A DNA stretch of 64,000 nt from an uncultured Eubacteriales bacterium (GTDB taxonomy: Bacteria; Bacillota; Clostridia; Lachnospirales; Lachnospiraceae): NCBI GenBank assembly GCA_900319795.1, contig ONPU01000006.1, forward strand, positions 31,120-95,119, given 5' to 3'. A model generated the notes under the pieces. It searched no databases, had not been told where the DNA came from, and worked only from the letters and a program-made list of their open reading frames with translations. Shown one piece after another: positions 55,648 through 64,000 of this stretch. Positions within the stretch are counted from its first letter, which is position 1; every line of letters starts with the position of its first letter. A program made the position numbers and the translations under genes.

Positions 55648-56580
55648 ATGTCGAATATCTATAAGGGAACTCTGGGACTCATCGGCAATACACCACTCGT
55701 GGAAGTGACGAATATCGAAAAGGACCTCGGACTTGAAGCGACGGTTCTCGTCAAGCTGGAATATTTCAATCCGGCAGGAAGCGTAAAAGACCGCATCGCG
55801 AAGGCCATGATCGAAGACGCGGAAGAAAAAGGCCTCCTGAAGGAAGGCTCCGTGATTATCGAACCGACTTCCGGAAATACGGGAATCGGCCTCGCCTCCA
55901 TCGCGGCGGCGAAGGGCTACCGGATCATTCTGACAATGCCCGAGACGATGAGTGTGGAACGAAGAAACATCCTGAAGGCCTATGGCGCGGAGCTGGTCCT
56001 CACGGAAGGTTCCAAAGGCATGAAAGGCGCGATCGCGAAAGCGGAGGAACTCGCGAAAGAGATTCCGGACAGCTTTATTCCGGGACAGTTTGTCAATCCC
56101 GCCAATCCGGCCATTCACAAGGCCACAACAGGTCCGGAGATCTGGAATGACACGGACGGGAAGGTTGATATCTTTATTGCCGGCGTAGGCACCGGCGGAA
56201 CCGTGACAGGGACCGGAGAATATCTGAAAGAACAGAATCCGAATGTCCGCGTCGTCGCTCTGGAGCCGGCAGATTCACCGGTTCTGTCCGAAGGAAAAGC
56301 CGGTTCCCACAAAATTCAGGGGATCGGAGCCGGATTTGTTCCGGATGTCCTGAATACAAAGGTTTACGACGAAGTCTTCAAGGCTTCCAATGAGGACGCG
56401 TTTGAAGCGGCAAAGCTGCTGGCGAAAAAAGAAGGCATCTCCGTGGGCATTTCCTCGGGAGCCGCTCTGCACGGCGCCATCACGCTTGCAAAGCGTCCTG
56501 AGAACAAGGGCAAAGTAATCGTGGCTCTTCTGCCCGACAGCGGCGACAGGTACTACTCTACCGCTTTATTTACAGAATAA
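55648..56580 (+). CDS. cysK: Cysteine synthase (O-acetylserine sulfhydrylase)
   Basis: PLP enzyme forming cysteine from O-acetylserine and sulfide. 310 residues. The PLP lysine is in [15 protein letters not shown], the substrate loop is [12 protein letters not shown], and the phosphate-binding loop is [11 protein letters not shown] at 55648 behind GGAAAGGAAGG. Together with metY it forms a sulfur-assimilation unit. Confidence 0.97.
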
Positions 56581-56620: not shown

Positions 56621-56652
56621 AAAAAATGACAGCGTCAACAGGCGCTGTCATT
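56621..56652. terminator. Shared terminator between cysK and the helicase gene
   Basis: AATGACAGCG (56625-56634) pairs with CGCTGTCATT (56643-56652), loop of 8. On the minus strand it is followed by TTTTTT. The TGA stop of the helicase lies in the stem. Confidence 0.88.
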
Positions 56653-58873
56653 TCCATCTCATTACCCGCCGTTTCATGCCCTCAACGTCGAGCACACCAT
56701 AGGCAAAGCCTTTGCGCACCAGAGCCTCAGGTACAAACTCATCATACTTTTCAAACACAGGCACTTCCTTTTCGTAAACCAGTTCCATCGCGTCAAATTC
56801 CTTTTCCGCTTCGGCGCAGACGATTTCATAAAATTCATCCTCGCTCGCCTGCATGGTGAACTGAATATAATATGGCCGGGAAGACTGAAGGCCCTTAAGG
56901 CCCAGCTGCTTTCCGCAGCGCAGCTTCAGGAACCGCTCCATGGCGAGAAAAGCATAGGTCCCCACCCAGGGAAACAGCGCCCACATCCTGCCGCCCAGAT
57001 GGACGAGTGGTCTTTTGGACATCAGCGACTTCCGGAAGGTCTCCCGCGCGTCCTGAAGGCGGCAGACCGCGTGCGTCATAAGATAAGGATACTGCTTATC
57101 TTCGTCCAGCACCCGGTACATTCGTTCCAGAATGCGTGTGTGGATATCCCCTGCCACATCACCGAAATAGGCAGGGATATTGCCCTTGACCAGGGTGCAG
57201 AACAGCTCCCGCCGCTTGTGATCCACATCCTCTACCACCCATACGCGTCCCGCGATAGCAATTTTATCCCCAACCGGAGGCGGCTTGACAATAGTCCCCA
57301 GCTGCTCGGAACCGGAACGAACGGTATATTCCACGTTTTCCTGAAAAACCGCGTAAAACTTATAGTTGTTTACCACCCGTTCTCCGGTCAGGCCTACGAT
57401 CAGCCCGCCGTTTTCCGTGCGGTTGATATGATCAATCTCAAGCAGGTGCCGGAGCAGCACCCTGTAATCCTCCTTAGAGATCCGTTGAAAACAGCTCAGT
57501 GTCAGAACGCGGGAAGCCAGTTCTCCCGGCGTCATCTCGCCGTGGGAAGCCAGCGTACTCATGGTCTGATGATAGAGAAGACTGTAGGGCATCCGGTCGA
57601 GGCGCGGAGGCTCCACAAACCGCTCCTCAATATAGAGCTGTATGAGGGCGATTCCCTGAATCAGGTACCACGGGATACTGTCGGGAAGCATGGCGCGTGC
57701 CTCCTGATGGTCCTCCCGCATCACGAACCACATTTCCGAAGGGTCGCCCCGCCGTCCGGTCCGGCCCATGCGCTGAAGAAAACCGGAAACGGTAAACGGT
57801 GCGTCGATCTGAAAGGCCCGCTCCAGCCGTCCCACATCGATCCCCAGCTCCAGTGTGGCCGTAGCACAGACACTCATCAGCGAATCGTCGTCCTTCATTT
57901 CCTCTTCCGCGCTCTCCCTGTAAGAGGCGGAGAGATTGCCGTGATGGATCAGAAAACGGTCAGGCTCATGGTTGACTTCGCAATACTGCCGGAGCTGCTG
58001 GCAAACTGCCTCGCATTCCTCGCGGGAGTTGGTGAACACCAGACACTTTCTGCCCTTTGTATGCTCAAAGATATATCCGACTCCCGGATCGGCTTTCTTT
58101 GGGGCGATATCGGTGGGAGCCTCTGCGACAGGCGTGTCAGCAGGCAGCTCTTTTCCCTCATCCGCCTGCGGATCGGAATTATAAAAATGCTCCATGGAAA
58201 GCCGCCAGACCTCTTTCCCACCGTCAAATTTCGGAATGACCGTGCTCCTGCCGCTTCCCGCTGCCAGAAACTGTCCCGCCAGCTCCGGATTTCCGATGGT
58301 GGCGGAAAGGCCGATTCGGCGGGGATTGCATCCGGCTGTCTTACAAAGCCTTTCAATCAGGCAAAATGTCTGCAGCCCACGATCCGCCCGTAAAAGAGAG
58401 TGAATCTCGTCGATGACGATAAAACGGAGATCACCGAACAGGGACGGTATTTCCATATGCTTATTGATCAGCAGTGACTCCAGAGACTCCGGAGTGATCT
58501 GCAGAATGCCGGAAGGCTTTTTCAAAAGCTTCCGCTTCCGCGACTGGCTGGCGTCTCCGTGCCATCGGGTTACGGCAATGCCCTCTTCCTCACAGAGCTC
58601 TTCCAGACGTCCGAACTGGTCATTGATAAGCGCCTTAAGAGGCGCGATATAGAGAACGCCCACTGTCCGGGACGGCTCCTCGTCCAGCAGCGTCAGAATC
58701 GGGAAGAACGCTGCTTCGGTCTTGCCGGAGGCGGTAGACGCAGTCAGCAGAACATTTTCTTCCGTGTTAAAAATGGCATCCCCCGCAGCATTCTGAACAG
58801 CTCTGAGGCTCTGCCAACCCGAGTGAAAAATGTATTCCTGAATAAACGGCGCGTAGCGCTCAAATACATTCAT
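56648..58873 (-). CDS. Lhr/BrxHI-like DEAD/DEAH helicase
   Basis: Superfamily 2 helicase of 741 residues. Walker A is in ASTASGKTEAAFF (about 45-57), motif II is DEIH, motif III GLSATIGN, and motif VI QRMGRTGRRGD. The middle carries an acidic insert (about 235-265). The C-terminal part (about 450-741) is the large Lhr-type extension, but the protein is shorter than E. coli Lhr. BrxHI of type 2 BREX is the closest functional analogy. It overlaps the BrxD-like gene by 4 bases (ATGA). Confidence 0.9.
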   Translation of the reverse strand: MNVFERYAPFIQEYIFHSGWQSLRAVQNAAGDAIFNTEENVLLTASTASGKTEAAFFPILTLLDEEPSRTVGVLYIAPLKALINDQFGRLEELCEEEGIAVTRWHGDASQSRKRKLLKKPSGILQITPESLESLLINKHMEIPSLFGDLRFIVIDEIHSLLRADRGLQTFCLIERLCKTAGCNPRRIGLSATIGNPELAGQFLAAGSGRSTVIPKFDGGKEVWRLSMEHFYNSDPQADEGKELPADTPVAEAPTDIAPKKADPGVGYIFEHTKGRKCLVFTNSREECEAVCQQLRQYCEVNHEPDRFLIHHGNLSASYRESAEEEMKDDDSLMSVCATATLELGIDVGRLERAFQIDAPFTVSGFLQRMGRTGRRGDPSEMWFVMREDHQEARAMLPDSIPWYLIQGIALIQLYIEERFVEPPRLDRMPYSLLYHQTMSTLASHGEMTPGELASRVLTLSCFQRISKEDYRVLLRHLLEIDHINRTENGGLIVGLTGERVVNNYKFYAVFQENVEYTVRSGSEQLGTIVKPPPVGDKIAIAGRVWVVEDVDHKRRELFCTLVKGNIPAYFGDVAGDIHTRILERMYRVLDEDKQYPYLMTHAVCRLQDARETFRKSLMSKRPLVHLGGRMWALFPWVGTYAFLAMERFLKLRCGKQLGLKGLQSSRPYYIQFTMQASEDEFYEIVCAEAEKEFDAMELVYEKEVPVFEKYDEFVPEALVRKGFAYGVLDVEGMKRRVMRWK

Positions 58874-60198
58874 ATCGTAAACTCCACAAAGCCTGCATCC
58901 GTCTCATCCGAAACGGCTTCTGATTTGGCATAACTGAATTCGTCGGAGGCAAGCAGCTCATCAATGCGCATATCAGGATTCTGATACAGCAGATCCAAAA
59001 GCTCGATAAAGTCCCGGATCACCTCGCGGGGTGTGATATTCTGATCCGCGCCGATGCGTCCGTATTCAATCTTGATGAAACTCACAAGATCTTCTGTAGA
59101 AATACTGCGGGAATATCCGTACAGGCCCGCGTGCATCTCAGACAGTTTTTCGCACAGTACCAGCATCTCCTCTGCGGTCAGCGGCTCCAGCCGGATTACC
59201 GGTGCCAGTAAATCTCTGGCGCCCGGCCTGGAAAAACGCCCTTCCTGAAGGCGGGAGCGCAGAGCTTCATAGCTGTAAATCCCCCTCCGCTTATCCTCCA
59301 ACGCCTGAGGCGTTGAGCCCATGAGGATACCGAGATATTTCGCCTTTCCCTGCAGGGTGTCGTTATACATGGTCAGGATTTTCTCGTAGTTGTACTGCCG
59401 GGTAATCGAATTGGGAATCTTGTAAATGTTCACCAGCTCGTCGATCATAATGAACATGCCCGTATAGCCCGCCAGACGGAAAAATGTGGCGAAGAGCTTC
59501 AGATAGTCGTACCAGTCGTCATCGGTAATGATCATGTTGACGCCGAGTGCTTCCTTAGCCTCGGTTTTTGTGCTGTATTCCCCACGGAACCAGCGGACGA
59601 CCTTCGCCTTCGTTTCATCGTCTCCGTCCACATAGGAGCGGTAATAGGAAGACAGGAGCTTCGCGAATTCAAAGCCGTGCACCAGCTCACTGACCGAAGC
59701 CGTCACTGCGTAAATCTTTTTATCTGTGGCGGCTTGAAGCGCAGGATCGTCGGGAGAAAGCCCTGTTTCCTCAACGGCCTCGGTCTGTACCGCGCTGATC
59801 CAGCGATCCAGGATCAGCGTCAGCGCTCCGCCCTCCGGCTTTGTTTTTGTCGACAGATTCGAGATCAGCTCCCGGTATGTCGCAAGTCCCTGTCCCTTCG
59901 TCCCCTGCAGTCGTCTTTCGGGCGAAAGGTCCGCGTCCGCTACTATAAAGCCCCGGTCCATCACGTAATTGCGGATCGTCTGGAGCAGAAAGCTCTTGCC
60001 GCTGCCATAGCGGCCCACGATAAACCGGAAGGACGCTCCTCCCTCCGAGATGATGTCCACATCGTGCAGCAGGGCTTCGATCTCATTTTTGCGTCCCACT
60101 GTTATATAGGGCAGACCGATGCGGGGCACCACTCCGCCCTTTAAAGAATTCAGCACCGTCTGCGCAATGCGCTTCGGCACCTTTTTCTGTTCAGCCAT
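58870..60198 (-). CDS. BrxD-like ATP-binding protein (DUF2791 type)
   Basis: P-loop ATPase of 442 residues. Walker A is GRYGSGKSF (62-70), close after the conserved YITVGRKNEIEAL; Walker B is FIMIDELVNIY (Asp253, Glu254). DLSPERRLQGTKGQGLATYREL is characteristic of BREX BrxD/DUF2791 proteins. ATG at 60198 lies behind GGAGG inside the TerB gene; GTG/ATG at 60213 is in frame but worse. Translation is coupled to both neighbours. Confidence 0.88.
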   Translation of the reverse strand: MAEQKKVPKRIAQTVLNSLKGGVVPRIGLPYITVGRKNEIEALLHDVDIISEGGASFRFIVGRYGSGKSFLLQTIRNYVMDRGFIVADADLSPERRLQGTKGQGLATYRELISNLSTKTKPEGGALTLILDRWISAVQTEAVEETGLSPDDPALQAATDKKIYAVTASVSELVHGFEFAKLLSSYYRSYVDGDDETKAKVVRWFRGEYSTKTEAKEALGVNMIITDDDWYDYLKLFATFFRLAGYTGMFIMIDELVNIYKIPNSITRQYNYEKILTMYNDTLQGKAKYLGILMGSTPQALEDKRRGIYSYEALRSRLQEGRFSRPGARDLLAPVIRLEPLTAEEMLVLCEKLSEMHAGLYGYSRSISTEDLVSFIKIEYGRIGADQNITPREVIRDFIELLDLLYQNPDMRIDELLASDEFSYAKSEAVSDETDAGFVEFTI

Positions 60199-61747
60199 AA
60201 GTCGTTCCTCCAAGTAGCTGGGCTAAATCCTCAATATAATCCTCGATCAGAATCAGCCGGTCATCCTCGCATGTCACAACCGTGTCGCCGATCTCGTCAA
60301 ACAGGGCTTCGTTGATAAAATCCGCCGCCATGGACGGCATCAGGCGATTGTCCTTGAGAACTGCCGTCACATCCTCACCTTTGAGAAGCGAACGAAGGAT
60401 TCGGATCTGTACTTCATCCAGCGGGAGATCGGCTGCGTTCTCTCCTTCAGGCGTCCCGGCAGCTTCTTCGTACATCGGGACAGCTTCCTCAGAACTCAGG
60501 ACAGCTTCCATGGGCTTGTCCAGTTCTTCCTCGGTCAGCAGACTGTCCTGTGTGACGAGCGCATCCTTGCGGATTTGCTCCAGACCGGACAGATCAATGG
60601 TGATCTTTGGCCTCGACGCTTCTTTTATGGCCTTCCGGTCCGCCTCGATCATCGCGTCGATGTAAGGAAGCACCCAGTCATTCTCCGGTTTTTCCTTGAG
60701 ATAGCGTCCCGTTTTCAGATAGCGGCGCAGCCTTGCGTCCGTTTCGCGCAGAAAACCCTGCATTCTCGCCTTATCAAAAGTGAGAACTTCATAGGCACAG
60801 ACCGTCCACAGTCCGTTTTTACACTGGAAACTGCGACACTCATTGAGAGCATACTCTCTTACTTCCGGCTGTTTCTGTTCATAATACACCGCGTTGGAAA
60901 ACGGATACCAGCGGCGCGTCTTCTTCTCGCCGAAGATCAGGGTGAACAATTGAAGCCCCCGCCAGCTGAAGTCGGAAGCACAGCGCCACGCCTCACTGAA
61001 CAGATGCTGCCCGCGCGCGGGGTCGAGCGTCAAAACCGGTGAATCCGCAGTCTTCTTTCCTCCGAACACACAGAGGGCCGAAAAGACTTCCTCATCTGAA
61101 AACGCTTCAGGCCTTTTGAGTACGGCCAGAGATTCGTCCCGGGCAATCATTTCCGGGTCGGCGTATTCCCGGACATAAGAGGCCGGCAAGTTATTTACCA
61201 CAGCATATTCCAGCATCCAGCGGCGGATATTTTTCCGCATCCGCTGATCGCCGATTCCGGAATCGATATATCCGGCTTCGAAGTCTCTCATTTTTTTCAG
61301 CGCGTCCTTAGGCGAGTCCGTACCCACACCGTTCAGAAGCTCATAAAGATAGAGATAAGCACAAGAAGCGGCAATCGGCTCGAAGATCCCCTTGCGCACT
61401 TTGGTACGCCAGGAAAAGTATCCGCGGAGCTGTTTTGTGGTTAAATCGTGGTAGGTAGGAAAATACCGTATAAAGCCGCTCCCTGACCAAGGATAGTCAT
61501 CCTCATAATCCTGCATGAATACAGCCTGCCGGTAGAAGTTTCCGGCTCTGGATTCAACGGATTCCCTGCCATATTGATAGAGGTGCCGCATTTCGCGCAG
61601 TTTTTCCGGCATCTGTTCCTTAGGCGGCCGGCTGTTGCCGGAAAAAGGCAGAGCCGTCTCCTGATAGACGTTCTCGCGGCTTGAAGGCTGTGACTCAAGG
61701 ACGACGGTAAAGCCGTGGGGCGTTTCAGTCTGCTCTGACATTTCCAT
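60191..61747 (-). CDS. TerB N- and C-terminal-domain protein
   Basis: A 518-residue soluble protein. The N-terminal half has the TerB-N signature: AGNFYRQAVFMQDYEDDYP, then FPTYHDLTTKQLRGYFSWR and PIAASCAYLYLYELLNGVG. The C-terminal region (about 370-510) has KITIDLSGLEQIR and is TerB-C-like. TerB domains are linked to tellurite resistance and stress or phage-defence clusters; the biochemical role is unknown. ATG at 61747 lies 5 bases behind AAAGGAGG. First gene of the cassette. Confidence 0.87.
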   Translation of the reverse strand: MEMSEQTETPHGFTVVLESQPSSRENVYQETALPFSGNSRPPKEQMPEKLREMRHLYQYGRESVESRAGNFYRQAVFMQDYEDDYPWSGSGFIRYFPTYHDLTTKQLRGYFSWRTKVRKGIFEPIAASCAYLYLYELLNGVGTDSPKDALKKMRDFEAGYIDSGIGDQRMRKNIRRWMLEYAVVNNLPASYVREYADPEMIARDESLAVLKRPEAFSDEEVFSALCVFGGKKTADSPVLTLDPARGQHLFSEAWRCASDFSWRGLQLFTLIFGEKKTRRWYPFSNAVYYEQKQPEVREYALNECRSFQCKNGLWTVCAYEVLTFDKARMQGFLRETDARLRRYLKTGRYLKEKPENDWVLPYIDAMIEADRKAIKEASRPKITIDLSGLEQIRKDALVTQDSLLTEEELDKPMEAVLSSEEAVPMYEEAAGTPEGENAADLPLDEVQIRILRSLLKGEDVTAVLKDNRLMPSMAADFINEALFDEIGDTVVTCEDDRLILIEDYIEDLAQLLGGTTYG

Positions 61748-61779: not shown

Positions 61780-61812
61780 ATTATACCATAGGGCGACGAG
61801 CCAGGCGAACAT
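61780..61812 (-). promoter_or_regulatory. Extended -10 promoter of the TerB-BrxD-helicase cassette
   Basis: Minus-strand TGG-TATAAT (TATAAT 61780-61785). The 33 bases match the importer promoter at 11799-11831 in 24 positions, including GGCTCGT. About 30 bases upstream of the ribosome site. Confidence 0.65.
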
Positions 61813-61821
61813 ACAATAAGA

Positions 61822-61855
61822 TCCCGGTCACTATTCTCTCAATGACCGGGATCCT
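61822..61855. terminator. Hairpin upstream of the TerB cassette
   Basis: GATCCCGGTCA (61822-61832) pairs with TGACCGGGATC (61845-61855), loop of 12. It probably ends transcripts from the methyltransferase/hydrolase pair; T-content after the stem is modest on both strands. Confidence 0.6.
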
Positions 61856-62000: not shown

Positions 62001-62672
62001 TTACCAGATAAACGGAATCAGTCTGTATTTCACTGTACTCTTATACTCCGCATATCCCGGCAGTCCTTTGGTGAGCACCTCTTCCTCGTTCCGGATCCGC
62101 ACCAGAATGATCGGAATATATGCAAGCATAATAACAAACGACAGCACCGATCCCAGAACAAGCGGCATGGACAGGAATAGCAGGACCGTTACCATATACA
62201 TCGGATGCCGGACAACTCCATAGAGACCGGTATCGATCACCTTCTGGTTTTCCTGAACCTCCACCGTTCTGGAAAGATAGGTATTCTCCCGCAGAACCTC
62301 AGCATAAAGTGCATATGCAGCCAGAAATACGATCGCAGCCAGAATACTTACCGCAGTGGGAAGCATCAGCCATTTATATCTGTAACTGAGTCCTGCCGAA
62401 ATGAAAGCTGCCAGAAACATGAGCCCACTCAATAAGATGACCCGGCGCTGCTCGCTTTCCTCTTCTTTGACGCTCAGGCGTTTCTTCAAGAGCTCCGGAT
62501 TCTTTTTCATCATGACAAGTCCGGCAATGAACATCGGAACAAACAGGATCCCGATCAGAAGCCAGCCTTGGGGATAGTTCCATGTCCCCGCAGGTATAAA
62601 CAGTAAGCCCGAAACCAGCAGCAGTCCGGCAGCAAACCTGGAAATGGCCCGGATAAAAAGTGCCTTACTCAT
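62001..62672 (-). CDS. Isoprenylcysteine carboxyl methyltransferase (ICMT/PEMT)-family membrane protein
   Basis: A 223-residue integral membrane protein with about five hydrophobic segments. The C-terminal part has the family motif YGVVRHPMYMVTVLLFL and the later RIRNEEEVLTKGLPGYAEY with Glu and Tyr near the active site. Bacterial members methylate diverse substrates, mostly unknown. ATG at 62672 behind GAGGAA, overlapping the end of the hydrolase gene. Confidence 0.88.
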   Translation of the reverse strand: MSKALFIRAISRFAAGLLLVSGLLFIPAGTWNYPQGWLLIGILFVPMFIAGLVMMKKNPELLKKRLSVKEEESEQRRVILLSGLMFLAAFISAGLSYRYKWLMLPTAVSILAAIVFLAAYALYAEVLRENTYLSRTVEVQENQKVIDTGLYGVVRHPMYMVTVLLFLSMPLVLGSVLSFVIMLAYIPIILVRIRNEEEVLTKGLPGYAEYKSTVKYRLIPFIW

Positions 62673-63489
62673 GACGTTCCTCCTCAATGGACCTGACAAA
62701 GTCCCTGATCATCTGATTTACTTCTTCCGGTTTATCGGTATTGGAGTTATGTCCTGCTTCCTGGATCCAGCGGATCGGAATGCGTTCTCTTTTCGCCCAT
62801 CTGCAGTTATAGCTTTTTGCCGATCCCGCCCGGTCCTTCTCTCCGCAGATCAGAATCACGGGGCAATCGATCTCATATGGCAGGTCCGCCTCCATCGCCT
62901 CTGCAAGCAGCTTCATTCCATGCCCGGATAGTTTACAGTATTCATCTTTTGTATAAGAATCCAGGAAACTGCGCATCAGCTTTCTGCCGTATCCACTCAC
63001 TGCACACCCGTTTGCTCCGATCCTTTTCAGGGTATTCCACGGAAAAGCCCGATACATCGGCTCCGTCCGCTTCAAAAGCCAGATCTCTGCCCTTGTCACG
63101 TAATTTCGCTTCAAGGGAGCTGAATCAATCGAAATGAAGCCTGCTGCCTCACCGGGGTATTTCTGTATAAAGCACTGGGATACATAGCCTCCCATGGACT
63201 GGCCGATCAGGACCGGGTGTGTGATCCCCTCTTTTTCCAGAATCGCATGCAGCCACACTGCTTTATCCATCAGTGAAAAATCCAGCCGGAAGGGCCGTGA
63301 GGCCGCATGCCCCGGTGCATCCCACGTAAGCAGATTATATTCCTCCTCAAAGGCTTCGATCTGCCTGTCAAACAGATGATGGTCCGCTGTAAGTCCGGGA
63401 AGAAAGATGAGTGTCTTCCGGGACGGGACGATATCATTTATCCAATAATGAATCACACCGCAGGCCGTTTCAAATATCTTTTCTGTCAA
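62665..63489 (-). CDS. Alpha/beta hydrolase
   Basis: Cytoplasmic alpha/beta-hydrolase-fold protein of 274 residues. The nucleophile elbow is GQSMGG, the oxyanion region FLPGLTADHH, the acid in ICGEKDRAG and the catalytic His in EAGHNSN. Substrate unknown. The TTG start at 63489 is 7 bases behind GGAGGAGG. Overlap with the next gene suggests co-expression. Confidence 0.9.
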   Translation of the reverse strand: MTEKIFETACGVIHYWINDIVPSRKTLIFLPGLTADHHLFDRQIEAFEEEYNLLTWDAPGHAASRPFRLDFSLMDKAVWLHAILEKEGITHPVLIGQSMGGYVSQCFIQKYPGEAAGFISIDSAPLKRNYVTRAEIWLLKRTEPMYRAFPWNTLKRIGANGCAVSGYGRKLMRSFLDSYTKDEYCKLSGHGMKLLAEAMEADLPYEIDCPVILICGEKDRAGSAKSYNCRWAKRERIPIRWIQEAGHNSNTDKPEEVNQMIRDFVRSIEEERHE

Positions 63490-63610: not shown

Positions 63611-64000
63611 TTACAATTCACGGACTGTTCCTTTCCTGACTGCATCGGCAAAGGCTAAGATGTTTTCTGATTTCATGATAGCAAGTCCCTGTCTTTCATC
63701 GCCAAGTACCACCAACTGATCTCCAGGTGAAATCTTAAATATCTTTCTTGCTTTAGCAGGAATCACAATCTGCCCTTTATCACCTACGGTTACCATTCCG
63801 AAGAGATGTTTTCCTTTTGGTGGAAGCGGCAAACCCATGCTATCCGCCGATTCATAATGTGCCAGATCATCAAGCGACACTTTAAATATATCCGCAAGTA
63901 TTTTGCACTTATCCAAATCGGGAACAGTTTCTCCGGTTTCCCACTTTGCTACAGACTGCCGGGAAACGCCAACTATATCAGCTATATCTTCCTGCGTCAT
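63611..64000 (-). CDS. HTH-XRE/AbrB-domain regulator (cut by window edge)
   Basis: At least 129 residues. The N-terminal XRE helix-turn-helix is TQEDIADIVGVSRQSVAKWE; its first helix lies beyond the right edge, so the Met at the edge is probably internal. A C-terminal SpoVT/AbrB swapped-hairpin domain follows: MVTVGDKGQIVIPAKARKIF. The combination is a known transcription-regulator type in Clostridia. Target unknown. Confidence 0.88.
   Translation of the reverse strand: MTQEDIADIVGVSRQSVAKWETGETVPDLDKCKILADIFKVSLDDLAHYESADSMGLPLPPKGKHLFGMVTVGDKGQIVIPAKARKIFKISPGDQLVVLGDERQGLAIMKSENILAFADAVRKGTVREL

What the first reader, a model, noticed from the sequence alone, without database searches (positions are those of the whole stretch)
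56648..61747. Three-gene TerB / BrxD-like ATPase / Lhr-BrxHI-like helicase cassette, a candidate defence system
Three genes overlap by 4-8 bases, share one promoter and end at one terminator, so they form a closed unit. BrxD and BrxHI are the ATPase and helicase of type 2 BREX, but no PglX methyltransferase, PglZ, PglW or PglY is present; a TerB-N/TerB-C protein takes their place. A remnant ORF next door hints at gene turnover. I know of no described system with exactly this composition, so it may be a minimal BREX-derived defence or DNA-repair module.
Basis: partly seen in the sequence, partly recalled or inferred. Interest (0 to 1): 0.82.

Follow-up and report, generated by a model that had tools for sequence, protein, structure and literature searches.

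The report
A Shango anti-phage defence operon
The three overlapping genes match, gene for gene, Shango, an already described bacterial anti-phage defence system, so the finding is real but not a new kind of system; the one fresh detail is that its first protein lacks a DNA-binding-type domain that many close relatives carry.

Summary
In detail: three co-directional genes (minus strand, 56648-61747) overlap by 8 and 4 bases, between a -10 element and a terminator-like hairpin. The guess of defence is right; 'no described system' is wrong. PADLOC names them SngA (1.8e-75), SngB (1.8e-194) and SngC (3.5e-283), far above the BREX models BrxD (1.3e-48) and BrxHI (2.4e-127). This is Shango, reported to inhibit many, not all, phages tested in PAO1 (PMC10250203, passages). 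No PglZ or PglX match in the genome, which is 82% complete. It is accessory: SngA in 13 of 42 genus genomes, SngB in 19 of 200 family genomes. Genes beside related trios match 78 defence families, control genes 3. SngA changes fastest (mean pairwise identity 50%; SngC 84%). Detail: 50 of 66 related trios carry an MmcQ/YjbR-like (double-wing, DNA-binding type) domain on SngA; the window lacks it through an in-frame gap of 306 bases. I propose that SngA reads the target and SngB drives the SngC helicase; that part is inference.

The parts
60191..61747 (-). sngA, 518 aa, TerB_N + TerB_C protein (ORF can be opened to 61753 with GTG; ATG 61747 follows a GGAGG)
   Evidence: PADLOC SngA 1.8e-75; Pfam TerB_N 6.5e-25, TerB_C 4.8e-21
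58870..60198 (-). sngB, 442 aa, BrxC/BrxD-type ATPase (ORF opens to TTG 60213)
   Evidence: PADLOC SngB 1.8e-194; Pfam BrxC_BrxD 5.1e-172; Walker A Lys and Walker B Asp-Glu kept in 67 of 67 full-length trios
56648..58873 (-). sngC, 741 aa, SF2 DEAD/DEAH helicase, BrxHI-related
   Evidence: PADLOC SngC 3.5e-283; motifs I, II (DEIH), III, V, VI, core residues in 67 of 67 full-length trios
61780..61788 (-). extended -10 promoter element TGG-TATAAT
   Evidence: sequence; TATAAT also in L004 and L020, not in L009; not listed by the consensus scan
56622..56655 (-). terminator-like hairpin and T-run that takes in the sngC stop codon
   Evidence: RNA fold -18.1 kcal/mol, 2 of 200 shuffles as good; not listed by the scan
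61728..61729 (-). junction inside sngA at which L009 and L004 carry 306 bases more, coding for an MmcQ/YjbR-like domain
   Evidence: DNA alignment; protein alignment

Best explanation
It is a complete Shango (SngABC) anti-phage operon, intact by sequence and accessory in its group. Proposed working (inferred, my confidence about 0.4): SngA (TerB_N/TerB_C) is the variable subunit that recognises a phage or infection feature, possibly DNA; it engages SngB, a BrxC/D-type ATPase, which loads or drives the SngC SF2 helicase on foreign nucleic acid and so blocks replication. Shown here: gene content and order, intact ATPase and helicase motifs, patchy distribution, defence-rich neighbourhoods of relatives, uneven change of the subunits. 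Inferred: horizontal spread, that the three proteins form a complex, what SngA reads, and what the helicase acts on.
For: Best PADLOC hits are SngA, SngB, SngC. 76 of the 80 kept genome-contig loci have A, B and C matches in this order on one strand. Catalytic motifs kept in 67 of 67 trios that were chosen as full-length. Accessory: SngA in 13 of 42 genus genomes, 5 of 18 good ones; SngB in 19 of 200 family genomes, 18 of 164 good ones. Flank genes of related trios: 78 PADLOC families at E 1e-20 among 129 proteins, against 3 families among 116 proteins around cysK. No PglZ, no PglX match and one BrxC/D-type ATPase in the genome. Anti-phage activity of Shango: PMC10250203, passages. SngA mean pairwise identity 0.50, SngC 0.84 over 67 trios.
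Against: The window's own cassette sits between metabolic genes: of 45 other window ORFs that I chose, only mad3 (2 members) and LmuA and RTasMBL (both in the ORF 274-2517) came up; the contig ends 2.25 kb beyond the cassette. The TerB domain PF05099 that a review lists for Shango was not found in SngA at E 0.01. In PAO1 Shango's effect on plating was modest and absent for some phages. No activity was tested on this copy. Mechanism: the SngA model has no PDB match at E 0.001; a review lists the mechanism as unknown. Low SngA identity may be weak constraint and not an arms race.
Confidence: 0.92

Rival explanations
1. A minimal BREX-derived system, or a BREX locus with its methyltransferase and PglZ elsewhere in the genome.
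For: SngB and SngC match BrxD (1.3e-48) and BrxHI (2.4e-127).
Against: Shango models score far higher for SngB and SngC, and SngA matches no BREX model at E 0.01; SngB is under NCBIfam's BrxD cut-off, 165 against 350 bits; no match to PglZ or to the two NCBIfam PglX models in the genome; no Pgl or Brx family among 45 other window ORFs at E 1e-20.
Confidence: 0.03
2. A chromosomal DNA-repair or stress module, not defence.
For: TerB proteins and Lhr-like helicases also occur in stress and repair settings (own knowledge, no call); the window's neighbours are metabolic genes.
Against: Patchy in genus and family; defence-rich flanks of relatives (against 39); Shango protects PAO1 from phages (PMC10250203).
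Confidence: 0.04
3. A Shango weakened or inactive because SngA has lost its N-terminal domain.
For: In-frame gap of 306 bases against L009 and L004; the three nearest trios by path, L002, L009 and L003, keep the domain.
Against: All three frames are open and motifs intact; 17 of 67 trios, window included, have no match to the domain, among them L020, the row of highest SngB+SngC identity to the window; the PADLOC SngA profile has only 528 positions; the TerB_N genes beside SngB in a Paenibacillus and a Sulfitobacter plasmid have no match to it.
Confidence: 0.1

Closest known systems
Shango (SngA TerB protein, SngB ATPase, SngC helicase)
   Same: Same three kinds of gene; best PADLOC models for all three
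   Different: No PF05099 match in SngA; sits singly between metabolic genes; many close relatives carry an extra MmcQ/YjbR-like domain that this copy lacks
BREX type 2 (BrxD, BrxHI)
   Same: Homologous ATPase and helicase
   Different: No PglZ or PglX match in the genome; a TerB protein instead
MmcQ/YjbR-TerB fusions (mentioned in PMC7641849, passages)
   Same: The fusion found on the SngA of relatives
   Different: The passages seen do not name Shango; the window's SngA lacks the domain
Hachiman (HamAB)
   Same: An SF2 helicase as motor
   Different: No HamA nuclease here; PMC12278908 (passages) places SngC with BrxHI, DruE and DpdJ, and HamB near Ski2 helicases

Membership tests
Shango | SngA, SngB and SngC encoded together | tested here: met
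   same order in 76 of 80 relatives
Shango | TerB-type domain in SngA | tested here: met
   TerB_N and TerB_C over cut-off; but PF05099, which a review lists, not found at E 0.01
Shango | Intact Walker A and B in SngB, SF2 motifs in SngC | tested here: met
Shango | Found among defence genes | tested here: inconclusive
   Met for related loci (against control 39), not for the window's own neighbours
Shango | Protection from phages | not testable with these tools
   Reported for the PA14 system
BREX type 2 | PglZ | tested here: not met
   PF08665: 0 matches in the genome, 82% complete; control over the cut-off in 2 of 14 genomes
BREX type 2 | PglX methyltransferase | tested here: not met
   NF033451 and NF033452: 0 matches in the genome; controls rang in 8 and 9 of 14 genomes, over the cut-off in 0 and 1
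BREX type 2 | PglW and PglY | tested here: inconclusive
   No such family at E 1e-20 among 45 other window ORFs; not searched in the rest of the genome
BREX type 2 | ATPase over NCBIfam's BrxD cut-off | tested here: not met
   165 against 350 bits

The most novel reading that the evidence does not exclude
SngA is the target-reading subunit of Shango, kept diverse while the SngB-SngC motor is conserved, and in gut Clostridia and their transfer partners it carries a detachable MmcQ/YjbR double-wing DNA-binding domain that is gained and lost repeatedly (at least 12 changes on a quick tree of 67 trios) as a way to alter what the system recognises or to escape a phage inhibitor.
Probability: 0.3. 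Interest if true: 0.55.

Novelty: new member of a known kind. Interest (0 to 1): 0.27.

Why it matters
As a system it adds one more Shango operon. The useful part is comparative: a 2026 review lists the mechanism of Shango as unknown (PMC12926258, passage), and the uneven change of SngA against SngB-SngC, with an optional domain of DNA-binding type, names the subunit and the swap experiment with which to test what Shango senses.

Tried and rejected
Rejected: ordinary BREX with parts elsewhere; core, vertically inherited module; the 31-codon ORF as a decayed gene (four other short ORFs not tested). Shango in phages: SngB gave no match at E 1e-5 among 50,697 phage records.

Led nowhere: fold search of the SngA model, no PDB match at E 0.001, best hits LysR-type regulators at E 0.45; sequence search of SngA in the PDB, three bacterioferritin sequences at E 0.17-0.23, taken as chance; SngB no PDB sequence match at E 0.01. 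Search for the YjbR-like domain in the rest of the genome: no match, without a positive control.

Empty-site test at cysK: 32 of 42 genus genomes have a cysK match at E 1e-80; I fetched 20 stretches, one per genome, some only 3-8 kb long. 19 of 20 show no Shango; one (L100) has it 2.9 kb downstream of cysK in the opposite orientation. Only L103 has the ICMT-like gene near cysK, in the other orientation, so no clean before/after site was found.

Limits: the 80 loci are the best by SngB identity, so the SngB figure is biased upwards; the fairer comparison is SngA with SngC. SngA ORFs were opened to the first start codon, so some carry what are probably untranslated 5' stretches (L004, L036). The 67 trios were chosen as full-length. 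The domain profile was built from 40 of the 50 trios that match it; with Pfam, 1 of 10 SngA scanned whole matched YjbR at E 0.01, under the cut-off. Flank test: 129 of 132 proteins, from 75 of 80 loci, mostly the nearest ORF of 180 codons or more on each side plus ORFs inside the trio; 3 long ones were dropped to fit the limit. Control: 116 of 137 proteins, cysK and Shango ORFs (and two antisense ORFs over cysK) dropped, all from the genus and from one kind of place, so it is a narrow control. The tool reports families and not the number of proteins hit, several families can hit one protein, and only 25 of the 78 were shown; mad3 rings in both sets. The tree is quick, 23 of 64 inner branches open; 12 changes are fewer than in most label shuffles (mean 15.2; 22 of 1000 at or below 12), so the trait is partly inherited. 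The 45 window ORFs are my choice of non-overlapping ORFs out of those.

Full report
Observation. Three minus-strand genes at 56648-61747 overlap by 8 and 4 bases and lie between an extended -10 element and a terminator-like hairpin. They follow the gene 55648-56580 on the plus strand (cysteine-synthase-like by my reading, called cysK here) and precede an ICMT-like gene 62001-62699 and an alpha/beta-hydrolase-like gene 62665-63489. The window ends where the contig ends.

Identity. Against PADLOC the best models are SngC (3.5e-283, 939.8 bits), SngB (1.8e-194, 644.9 bits) and SngA (1.8e-75, 253.6 bits, the one family for that protein); the BREX models follow at 424.1 (BrxHI) and 164.3 bits (BrxD). 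Pfam gives DEAD and Helicase_C, BrxC_BrxD, and TerB_N with TerB_C. NCBIfam's BrxD model is matched at 165 bits, under its cut-off of 350. Shango is in print. PMC10250203 (passages) describes the three-gene TerB, ATPase, DEAD/DEAH helicase system of PA14, reports a modest 10-100-fold change in plating for many phages in PAO1 though not for all, strong protection in liquid culture, and says that another report had found Shango in E. coli; that other report I did not read. PMC12278908 (passages) groups SngC with BrxHI, DruE and DpdJ. PMC11096173 (passages) shows Shango in E. coli islands with other defence systems. PMC13356809 (passages) reports Shango in rumen genomes, so its presence in such bacteria is not new; by my reading 65 of the 80 record titles name Clostridia, many from rumen or gut samples.

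Not BREX. The genome has one match to BrxC_BrxD, this one, none to PglZ and none to the two NCBIfam PglX models; it is 82% complete, so absence is not proof. Among 45 other window ORFs no Brx or Pgl family reached E 1e-20. PglW and PglY were not searched in the rest of the genome.

Distribution. SngA is found in 13 of 42 genomes of the genus (window included; G004 only by a weak part match), 5 of 18 of the good ones. SngB by the PADLOC model at E 1e-100 is in 19 of 200 genomes of the family (window included), 18 of 164 good ones. In genome contigs 393 of 419 candidate stretches encode a relative of SngB and the best 80 were kept. Of these, 76 have A, B and C matches in order on one strand; L026 has no SngC match, L029, L055 and L068 no SngA match, L055 being cut by its contig end. 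Record titles include Bacteroidales, planctomycete and Desulfovibrio bins at 84-91% SngB identity, which points to wide transfer, with the warning that these are binned metagenome genomes.

Defence context. Flank proteins of the trios (129 proteins, 75 of the 80 loci) match 78 PADLOC families at E 1e-20; among the 25 shown are type II and III methyltransferases, a type II restriction enzyme, CARF proteins, mad3 and mad8. 116 proteins around cysK in genus relatives match 3 families (mad3, DndA, SspA; the last two I take for cysteine desulfurase, from own knowledge). The control is narrow (see limits). In L046 two methyltransferase-like genes and a third gene lie between SngB and SngC. The window's own copy has no such neighbours.

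Subunits change unevenly. In 67 of 81 trios with full-length single ORFs (80 loci plus the window), mean pairwise identity is 0.50 for SngA, 0.85 for SngB and 0.84 for SngC; distances of A and C correlate at 0.77, so SngA mostly travels with the trio and changes faster, and is not freely exchanged. Walker A lysine and Walker B Asp-Glu of SngB and the core motif residues of SngC are invariant in these 67.

The optional domain. In 50 of the 67 trios (all relatives; the window is among the 17 without) SngA starts with an extra domain of about 95-110 residues. 33 of 40 copies match Pfam YjbR at E 1 or better, best 4.8e-7, the first member 16.8 bits against a cut-off of 30.1; a profile of the 40 finds PSPTO_3016 in the PDB at 4.6e-12; the predicted fold (pLDDT 92) matches it at E 2.4e-7, TM 0.82, and E. 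coli YjbR at 1.5e-3, TM 0.64. [quoted passage not shown] The window lacks the domain: the start of its SngA (MEMSEQTE) and the stretch after the domain (TPHGFTVVLES) are joined, and 306 bases present in L009 and L004 are missing in frame; L020 lacks the domain with other borders, which suggests separate events. By path on the SngB+SngC tree the nearest trios L002, L009 and L003 keep it; the fourth, L020, which has the highest identity to the window, lacks it. Presence changes at least 12 times on that tree. No separate copy was found in the fetched stretches of trios that lack it or in the genome (no positive control). A search for papers holding both Shango and YjbR found 0; MmcQ with TerB found 1, PMC7641849. 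These cover only the held open-licence library.

How it most likely works. SngA as variable reader, SngB as ATPase loader, SngC as helicase motor. The SngA model (pLDDT 87, pTM 0.67) is mostly helical and ends in an H-H-H-E-E-H unit (445-511) that I read as winged-helix-like; the PDB search gave only weak LysR-type hits (E 0.45), in keeping with that but no proof. No nuclease or methyltransferase domain was recognised in the three proteins at E 0.01, so blocking by a motor is likelier than cutting; this is inference.

Verdict. Real, intact by sequence, and already known as Shango: a new member of a known kind.

Noticed in passing
L046:3783-6810: Two DNA-methyltransferase-like genes and a third gene that I read as their restriction partner lie between SngB and SngC of a Bacteroidales-labelled Shango.
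   Followed up: partly
L057:3690-4622: A gene that I read as RhuM/Fic-like (recalled motif, not scanned alone) sits between SngB and SngC.
   Followed up: no
L029:7914-11548 and L026:536-3390: L029 has SngB and SngC but no SngA match; L026 has SngA and SngB but no SngC match although the contig goes on: possible partial Shango systems.
   Followed up: no
L003:6203-6532 and 49 more of 67 trios: MmcQ/YjbR-like N-terminal domain on SngA, repeatedly present or absent.
   Followed up: yes
window 61818-61855: A 16-pair hairpin, -25.6 kcal/mol, z -7.1, upstream of the sngA promoter; terminator of the upstream genes or an insertion scar.
   Followed up: partly
L100:4001-13105: In a genus relative Shango also lies close to the cysK-like gene but in the opposite orientation, perhaps a repeated landing spot.
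   Followed up: no
plasmids collection: 691 plasmid records encode an SngB/BrxD-type ATPase under 60% identity, 449 of them Klebsiella; whether Shango or BREX was not sorted.
   Followed up: no
window 63611-64000: A gene joining a helix-turn-helix and a MazE-type domain at the contig end.
   Followed up: no
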